34,969 bases of DNA. Origin: Candidatus Beckwithbacteria bacterium (GTDB lineage Bacteria; Patescibacteriota; Microgenomatia; UBA1400; CG1-02-47-37). Positions 13,513-14,195 of this stretch are shown here, in pieces (within the stretch, counting starts at the first letter, position 1; each line of letters starts with the position of its first letter). The notes beneath the pieces are model-generated. The model did not search any database, was not told the DNA's origin, and saw only the letters and a program-made list of their open reading frames with translations. The DNA lies in assembly GCA_026397255.1 (NCBI GenBank), contig JAPLVF010000009.1, forward strand, positions 1 to 34,969, in the 5' to 3' direction. The position numbers were made by a program, and so were the translations under genes.

Positions 13513-13541
13513 TTGACGTAAGGTACCGTACCTTACATAAT
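13513..13541 (+). promoter_or_regulatory. RAYT promoter whose spacer is a REP palindrome
   Basis: TTGACG at 13513-13518, then exactly 17 bases (13519-13535, the body of REP1), then CATAAT at 13536-13541. The RAYT ATG is 6 bases further on. Anything bound to the palindrome would cover both promoter elements. Confidence 0.72.
13518..13536. repeat. REP palindrome 1
   Basis: GTAAGGTACCGTACCTTAC: perfect 9-bp arms with a single central C. It lies between obg and the RAYT gene, inside the RAYT promoter. Confidence 0.88.
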
Positions 13542-13547
13542 AAACCA

Positions 13548-14195
13548 ATGCCCAGCCGCTACTATTTACGCCAATTCTACCCCGACACTTTTCACCACAT
13601 TTATAACCGCGGCGCCTATAAACAAAAAATCTTTATTACTCAAAAAGATTATCAAACTTTCCTGGACATTTTGTCGTATTATTTAAAATTCCCTACCGGT
13701 AAACCATTCGTCAGAGCCGCTAAAAAATTTCCCACCAACTCTCCCGCTTGTCCATTATTAGCTTTTTGTTTAATGCCTAATCATTTTCATTTATTGATTC
13801 AGCAAGTCAACAATCAACCGACCATCGCCAACTTATTAAAAAGGGTGAGTATCACCTACGCCATGTACTTCCAGGAAAAACATCAGCACTCCGGTGCGTT
13901 ATTCCAAAGTAAATACAAAAGCATTTCCGTTCAGTCCGAAAACCAATTGTTATATTTATCCAAATACATCCACCTAAATCCTACAAAAATGACAGGTACC
14001 GTACCTTACATATATTCTTACTCATCGCTAAAAGATTATATTAATCTTACGGAAACACGGACATGGATTCATCCGGAAATCATTCTTAACGCCGCCTTCC
14101 CCAACTCTCCCAACCCCGGAACAAAATACCAGAAATTCGTTTTAGACATTAACGATCAGAATTCTGAATTAATTCAACCCGTTACTATCGACTGA
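13548..14195 (+). CDS. REP-associated tyrosine transposase (RAYT; IS200-like Y1 transposase)
   Basis: 215 codons from the ATG at 13548, chosen because an upstream ATG (13488) would translate the REP palindrome and run through the promoter. Y1 transposase features: [15 protein letters not shown] at 15-29, the HUH motif in [10 protein letters not shown] (His79, His81), and the tyrosine helix [11 protein letters not shown] (catalytic Tyr probably 104 or 107) followed by [13 protein letters not shown] and [10 protein letters not shown]. RAYTs nick and join single strands at REP hairpins and usually sit alone between two REPs, as here (REP1 upstream, REP3 just after the stop). A third REP-like copy lies inside the coding end (codons 149-155). 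Probably domesticated rather than an active insertion sequence, since no long terminal ends are seen. Confidence 0.9.
13994..14011. repeat. REP palindrome 2, partial, inside the RAYT gene
   Basis: AGGTACCGTACCTTACAT: right arm complete, left arm reduced to AGGTAC. It codes for GTVPYI near the C-terminal part of RAYT, where other RAYTs have an ordinary loop. Confidence 0.75.

What the first reader, a model, noticed from the sequence alone, without database searches (positions are those of the whole stretch)
13513..13548. RAYT promoter uses its own REP palindrome as the 17-base spacer
TTGACG and CATAAT are separated by exactly 17 bases that are the body of REP1, and the RAYT ATG follows 6 bases later. 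If this transposase binds REPs as its family does, it would cover its own promoter, giving built-in autorepression tied to REP copy number. I know of no described RAYT with this layout.
Basis: partly seen in the sequence, partly recalled or inferred. Interest (0 to 1): 0.8.

Follow-up and report, generated by a model that had tools for sequence, protein, structure and literature searches.

The report
REP palindrome inside RAYT's own promoter
In a small uncultured bacterium and its relatives, a mobile-DNA enzyme gene carries the short palindrome it probably recognises inside its own on-switch (and often inside its own coding sequence too), and these copies change together as species diverge, which suggests, without proving it, that the enzyme switches itself off.

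Summary
TTGACG (13513-13518) and CATAAT (13536-13541) lie exactly 17 bases apart; the 17 bases are the core of a 19-nt perfect REP palindrome; the RAYT ATG is at 13548. It is not chance: only 0.08% of random centres score as well, and two orthologous loci in sister species (RAYT 46-52% identical) keep TTGAC-REP-CATAAT-ATG although their REP sequences differ. RAYTs across the candidate phyla often have a palindrome there: 103/153 within 80 bp upstream against 5.9 in shuffles, about 45 in the spacer and 34 at the -35. Many also carry the same palindrome inside the CDS, at codons ~57 and ~150, and just after the stop. All copies in a locus change in concert. The autorepression idea is plausible but unproven. 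Known TnpA_REP proteins bind folded single-stranded REPs, not duplex. Because these genes look leaderless, a REP close upstream must fall on the promoter, and a permutation test shows no family-wide preference for the spacer. Copy number is only 9, so 'REP copy number sensing' has little support. REPs inside RAYT genes were already known (subclass 2.4), at a different position; I found no description of the promoter layout.

The parts
13513..13518 (+). predicted -35 (TTGACG) of the RAYT promoter; last G belongs to the REP
   Evidence: TTGAC conserved in orthologous loci of G001 and G002
13518..13536 (.). REP1, perfect 19-nt palindrome GTAAGGTACCGTACCTTAC; its central 17 nt are the promoter spacer
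   Evidence: folds as hairpin, -5.5 kcal/mol as ssDNA
13536..13541 (+). predicted -10 (CATAAT); first C belongs to the REP; 6 nt before the ATG, so the transcript is predicted leaderless
   Evidence: conserved in orthologues; -10 ends 5-9 nt before ATG in 80/155 homologues against 9.7 shuffled
13548..14195 (+). RAYT / TnpA_REP-like HUH tyrosine transposase, 215 aa (H79-x-H81, Y140---N144-P145)
   Evidence: Pfam Y1_Tnp 4.8e-9; NCBIfam REP_Tyr_transpos 6.5e-12, below its cut-off; AlphaFold model pLDDT 90, best PDB match 4er8
13991..14009 (+). REP copy inside the RAYT coding sequence (GACAGGTACCGTACCTTAC, encodes T-G-T-V-P-Y), in the loop after the catalytic Tyr helix
   Evidence: same alignment position holds a cognate REP in 29 homologues
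14198..14218 (.). REP copy 2 nt after the RAYT stop codon
   Evidence: a copy near or just after the stop in most homologues
15653..15675 (.). REP copy between the convergent 476-aa ORF and the M23/LysM gene
20527..20549 (.). REP copy just upstream of the ATG of a sortase-like gene on the - strand, also followed by CATAAT but without a good -35
12494..13489 (-). obg GTPase gene, divergent from the RAYT
   Evidence: Pfam GTP1_OBG 1.1e-52
13495..13503 (-). predicted extended -10 (TGTTAGAAT) of obg, 5 nt from its ATG; its -35 position (13518-13523) falls on REP1
   Evidence: sequence; TGTTACAAT at the same place in G001 and G002
14223..15653 (+). 476-aa membrane-protein ORF lying between two REPs; absent from this place in G001 and G002

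Best explanation
This is a compact RAYT-REP unit (a REPtron) of a Patescibacterium. SHOWN: the RAYT's predicted leaderless sigma70-type promoter has the cognate REP as its spacer, the same REP lies inside the gene and just after it, and the arrangement was inherited while the REP sequence changed in concert at every copy. INFERRED: because the promoter copy keeps pace with the other copies, the RAYT still recognises it; when RAYT occupies or folds this REP (as a hairpin or cruciform, or on transiently single-stranded DNA), RNA polymerase cannot use the -35/-10 pair, so the RAYT keeps its own expression low (negative autoregulation). The neighbouring obg promoter, whose -35 position overlaps the same REP, could be affected too. 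Part 1 (layout and its conservation) about 0.95; part 2 (functional autorepression) about 0.4.
For: Exact layout; REP-centred promoter score in the top 0.08% of random centres, best of all nine REP copies in the genome. Orthologous obg<-|->RAYT loci in G001 and G002 keep TTGAC and CATAAT while the REP is GGAAGGGTCSGACCCTTCC or GGAAGGATCSGATCCTTCC instead of GTAAGGTACSGTACCTTAC. Between G001 and G002 the block from TTGAC to CATAAT differs only by one symmetric base pair within the palindrome, at 71% identity over the locus, and all 11 and all 5 genomic copies of the pattern differ the same way. The tree groups the three spacer-type genes (95*); close homologues with different palindromes keep the position (median shift 3 nt against 11-13). 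The same palindrome recurs in the gene in 42/86 loci and after it in 65/86 (null 4/250 and 3/250). The fold matches a REP-binding RAYT.
Against: No transcript or binding data. Characterised TnpA_REP proteins recognise single-stranded REP hairpins in a strand-specific way (PMC8266576). Across the family the palindrome is in the spacer in only 42 of 103 cases, and permuting positions gives 40.9 +/- 3.2 (p = 0.42), so there is no general tuning to the spacer. A by-product of a compact, leaderless gene explains the overlap too.
Confidence: 0.45

Rival explanations
1. By-product of compactness: the REP is simply the left boundary (recognition site) of the RAYT unit, kept within about 20-60 nt of the ATG; because the gene is leaderless its promoter occupies the same stretch, so overlap is unavoidable and has no regulatory role.
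For: Leaderless signal in the family: a -10 match 5-9 nt before the ATG in 80/155, SD-like in 8/155. REPs lie close to both ends of the gene. Palindrome position relative to the promoter varies: spacer, at -35, or upstream; permutation p = 0.42.
Against: In the window clade and in several other clades the position is held within a few nt while the REP sequence changes, and the promoter copy stays cognate.
Confidence: 0.42
2. RNA-level or insulating role: the REPs act as hairpins, blocking read-through transcription into the antisense-inserted RAYT or controlling its mRNA through the in-gene and 3' copies.
For: The RAYT sits antisense between two genes that are joined operon-like in G003; REPs inside and after the gene form hairpins.
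Against: REP1 is upstream of the predicted start, so it is not in the RAYT's own mRNA; no T-run follows it and it was not called as a terminator.
Confidence: 0.1
3. The -35/-10 pair is a chance match and the real promoter or start is elsewhere (for example the ATG at 13488).
For: Promoter-like matches are common (3.4 expected in the 2.5-kb region); the upstream frame is open to 13488.
Against: Hexamers conserved in two orthologues whose REPs differ; the upstream frame has stops in L017 and no ATG in L018; the family has a -10 peak at this distance.
Confidence: 0.03

Closest known systems
TnpA_REP / RAYT with REPtron (E. coli and others; Nunvar 2010 PMC2817692; Quentin 2018 PMC6006769; Corneloup 2021 PMC8266576)
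   Same: HUH + Y---NP transposase flanked by cognate palindromes dispersed in the genome; best fold match 4er8 (RAYT bound to a REP hairpin)
   Different: REP lacks the GT[AG]G foot, is a near-perfect palindrome with a 1-nt centre, has about 9 copies, and forms the promoter spacer; the word promoter does not occur in the main text of the three papers
Subclass 2.4 tnpA_REP genes with in-frame REP insertions (Quentin 2018; equated there with RAYT group 4)
   Same: REPs inside the transposase gene without breaking the frame, in loops
   Different: [quoted passage not shown] here before the HuH (codon ~57) and after the Y helix (codon ~150), none between
IS elements whose transposase promoter overlaps the left terminal repeat (general knowledge, not tested here)
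   Same: transposase binding site overlaps its own promoter, allowing autoregulation
   Different: those are duplex DNA-binding transposases with terminal inverted repeats
Rickettsia palindromic elements (general knowledge, not tested here)
   Same: short palindromes inserted in frame in genes
   Different: here tied to a RAYT and present in its promoter

Membership tests
TnpA_REP / RAYT (class 2 TnpA_Y1) | HUH motif and Y---NP motif | tested here: met
   H79, H81, Y140, N144 invariant in 47 aligned homologues, P145 nearly so
TnpA_REP / RAYT (class 2 TnpA_Y1) | Y1 transposase fold | tested here: met
   model pLDDT 90; best PDB match 4er8, E 8.8e-6; Pfam Y1_Tnp
TnpA_REP / RAYT (class 2 TnpA_Y1) | NCBIfam NF047646 REP_Tyr_transpos above its curated cut-off | tested here: inconclusive
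   E 6.5e-12 but 45.5 bits against a cut-off of 80
TnpA_REP / RAYT (class 2 TnpA_Y1) | gene flanked by cognate REPs, which also occur elsewhere in the genome | tested here: met
   REPs at 13518, 14199 and inside the gene; nine genomic copies
Canonical REP | GT[AG]G guide tetranucleotide at the foot of the hairpin | tested here: not met
   GTAA in the window, TGGA in G001 and G002
Canonical REP | high copy number (often over 100), extragenic | tested here: not met
   9 copies, 3 of them inside genes: RAYT, Glu dehydrogenase-like, TsaD-like
Subclass 2.4 with in-gene REPs | in-frame REPs in the gene, mostly between HuH and Y | tested here: not met
   in-gene copies present but before HuH or after Y
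Autoregulated promoter (operator within promoter) | recognition site overlaps the core promoter, conserved in orthologues | tested here: met
Autoregulated promoter (operator within promoter) | protein binds the site and represses transcription | not testable with these tools
   needs gel shift and reporter assays

The most novel reading that the evidence does not exclude
In Patescibacteria a single-strand-type transposase has turned its own REP into an operator: REPs in the promoter spacer, in two loops of its own gene and at its 3' end form a self-regulating set that evolves in concert and in place, so RAYT expression is tied to recognition of its own REP.
Probability: 0.38. Interest if true: 0.75.

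Novelty: new variant of a known kind. Interest (0 to 1): 0.58.

Why it matters
How RAYTs are kept in genomes, controlled and matched to their REPs is an open question. Here the REPs can be followed at orthologous positions (promoter, gene loop, stop codon) while their sequence changes symmetrically in every copy, and the promoter copy gives a simple readout: a reporter assay would test both recognition and autoregulation. If the RAYT does repress through a REP, it would be a regulatory use of a protein family known for single-stranded hairpins.

Tried and rejected
(2) Family-wide test that palindromes prefer the promoter spacer: not supported, p = 0.42. (3) Promoter as chance match: rejected by orthologues. 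(4) Upstream start at 13488: unlikely. (5) Recurrence of the layout at the other REP copies of the genome: only the RAYT copy scores as a strong promoter spacer; the in-gene copy at 13991 has a weaker one (ATGACA-16-TATATT, 9.4) and 20529 has CATAAT but no -35. (6) Sequence search against PDB chains found nothing; the fold search did. (7) Literature searches for RAYT autoregulation and for Patescibacteria RAYT palindromes returned no papers; only open-access papers are held, and Bertels 2017 could not be read.

Full report
What is there. The window is contig C9 of an 895-kb genome; its closest relatives among named records are candidate-phyla (Patescibacteria, many of the Microgenomates group) assemblies. 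At 13513-13541 the sequence TTGACG-TAAGGTACCGTACCTTA-CATAAT is exactly a sigma70-type -35, a 17-nt spacer and a -10, followed after 6 nt by the ATG (13548) of a 215-aa protein. The 17 nt are the core of a perfect palindrome, GTAAGGTACCGTACCTTAC (13518-13536). The palindrome is a true repeat: five copies in the window and nine in the genome. Besides REP1 the window copies are at 13991 (inside the RAYT gene), 14199 (just after its stop), 15655 (between convergent genes) and 20529 (before a sortase-like gene). The protein is a RAYT: Y1_Tnp, invariant H79-x-H81 and Y140---N144, and an AlphaFold model (pLDDT 90) whose best PDB match is 4er8, the RAYT-REP hairpin complex.

Is it chance? A promoter match alone would be weak evidence (8 found against 3.4 expected). 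A promoter forced to have a given centre in its spacer scores as well as here for only 0.08% of random centres, and none of the other eight REP copies reaches it. The decisive evidence is comparative. Two genomes of the same family (G001, G002) carry the orthologous locus, obg divergent from the RAYT and then the M23/LysM gene, with RAYT identities of 46-52% to the window and 66% to each other. Both have TTGACT-REP-CATAAT-ATG with an 18-nt spacer, but their REPs are GGAAGGGTCSGACCCTTCC and GGAAGGATCSGATCCTTCC. Between these two the block from TTGAC to CATAAT differs only by one symmetric base pair in the palindrome, while the aligned locus is 71% identical. The copy in the gene and the copy at the stop carry the same change, and so do all 11 and all 5 copies of the pattern in those genomes. 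The REPs therefore changed in concert and in place.

How general is it? Among 153 deduplicated homologous loci, 103 have a palindrome within 80 nt of the start, against 5.9 in shuffled sequence and 5 of 151 control regions. By layout, 45 are in the promoter spacer, 34 at the -35, 21 upstream, 2 downstream and 50 have none. The window RAYT and its two orthologues form a supported clade, all with the spacer layout. Spacer placement shows phylogenetic signal (20 changes against a mean of 27.4 in shuffles), and close homologues with different palindromes keep the position (median shift 3 nt against 11-13 for distant ones). Across the whole family, however, the number in the spacer equals what permuted positions give (42 against 40.9 +/- 3.2, p = 0.42). 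The likely reason is that both promoter and palindrome lie at a narrow distance from the ATG. In 80 of 155 RAYTs a good -10 ends 5-9 nt before the ATG (9.7 in shuffles) and only 8 have a Shine-Dalgarno-like motif, so these genes look leaderless and a REP close to the gene must fall on the promoter.

Copies inside the gene. Of 86 loci with a clear upstream palindrome, 42 have the same palindrome inside the RAYT coding sequence and 65 within 400 nt after it; with motifs swapped between loci the figures are 4/250 and 3/250. The in-gene copies fall at two alignment positions, residue ~57 and residues 149-152 of the window protein, or at the very C-terminus; none lies between HUH and Y. Both positions are loops in the model. 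Two copies in one gene often lie in different reading frames and encode unrelated peptides, so the nucleic acid, not the peptide, is conserved. [quoted passage not shown] the positions here differ.

Origin of the locus. In G003, of the same family, the M23/LysM gene runs directly into obg (stop overlapping the GTG start), and in G004 the two are 320 nt apart. The RAYT therefore most likely inserted, antisense, between two neighbouring genes in the ancestor of G000, G001 and G002. obg now has a conserved extended -10 (TGTTAGAAT or TGTTACAAT) near its ATG, and its -35 position falls on REP1, so any protein bound at REP1 could affect both genes (inference).

Mechanism. Shown: layout, conservation and concerted change. 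Inferred: the promoter copy must remain recognisable to its RAYT, and occupancy or folding of that copy would exclude RNA polymerase, giving negative autoregulation. Against a simple version: studied TnpA_REP proteins bind single-stranded REP hairpins strand-specifically (PMC8266576), and the overlap may be only a by-product of a compact leaderless gene. I put functional autorepression at about 0.4. The idea of sensing REP copy number has little support with nine copies. Three RAYT papers searched for the term 'promoter' had no occurrence, and library searches for RAYT autoregulation or Patescibacteria RAYT palindromes returned nothing, so the promoter layout appears undescribed in what could be searched.

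Verdict. A real, conserved and apparently undescribed arrangement; a new variant of a known kind (RAYT-REP unit); the regulatory claim is testable but untested.

Noticed in passing
13993-14007 (window) and L009:667-681: The REP inside the RAYT gene and a REP inside a TsaD-like gene share the same imperfect arm (ATGACAGGTACCGTACCTTACATAT) and encode the same peptide MTGTVPYI, suggesting one was copied from the other.
   Followed up: partly
L001:1502-1514; L196:2088-2104: REP copies also lie inside a Glu/Leu dehydrogenase gene of this genome and inside the obg gene of G001, so these REPs are not strictly extragenic.
   Followed up: partly
14198-15675: A 476-aa membrane-protein ORF lies between two REPs; G001 and G002 lack it here and G000 has only distant paralogues, as if a REP-flanked cassette had entered at a REP.
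   Followed up: partly
20518-20549: A sortase-like gene (- strand) has a REP followed by CATAAT a few nt before its ATG, resembling half of the RAYT promoter layout.
   Followed up: no
13989-14016: The in-gene REP is also flanked by a promoter-like pair (ATGACA-16-TATATT, 9.4 bits), a possible internal promoter or chance.
   Followed up: no
homologous loci L026, L058, L140: In another RAYT clade the -35 TTGACA is itself part of the palindrome arm (TGACA...TGTCA), a separate form of promoter-palindrome fusion.
   Followed up: partly
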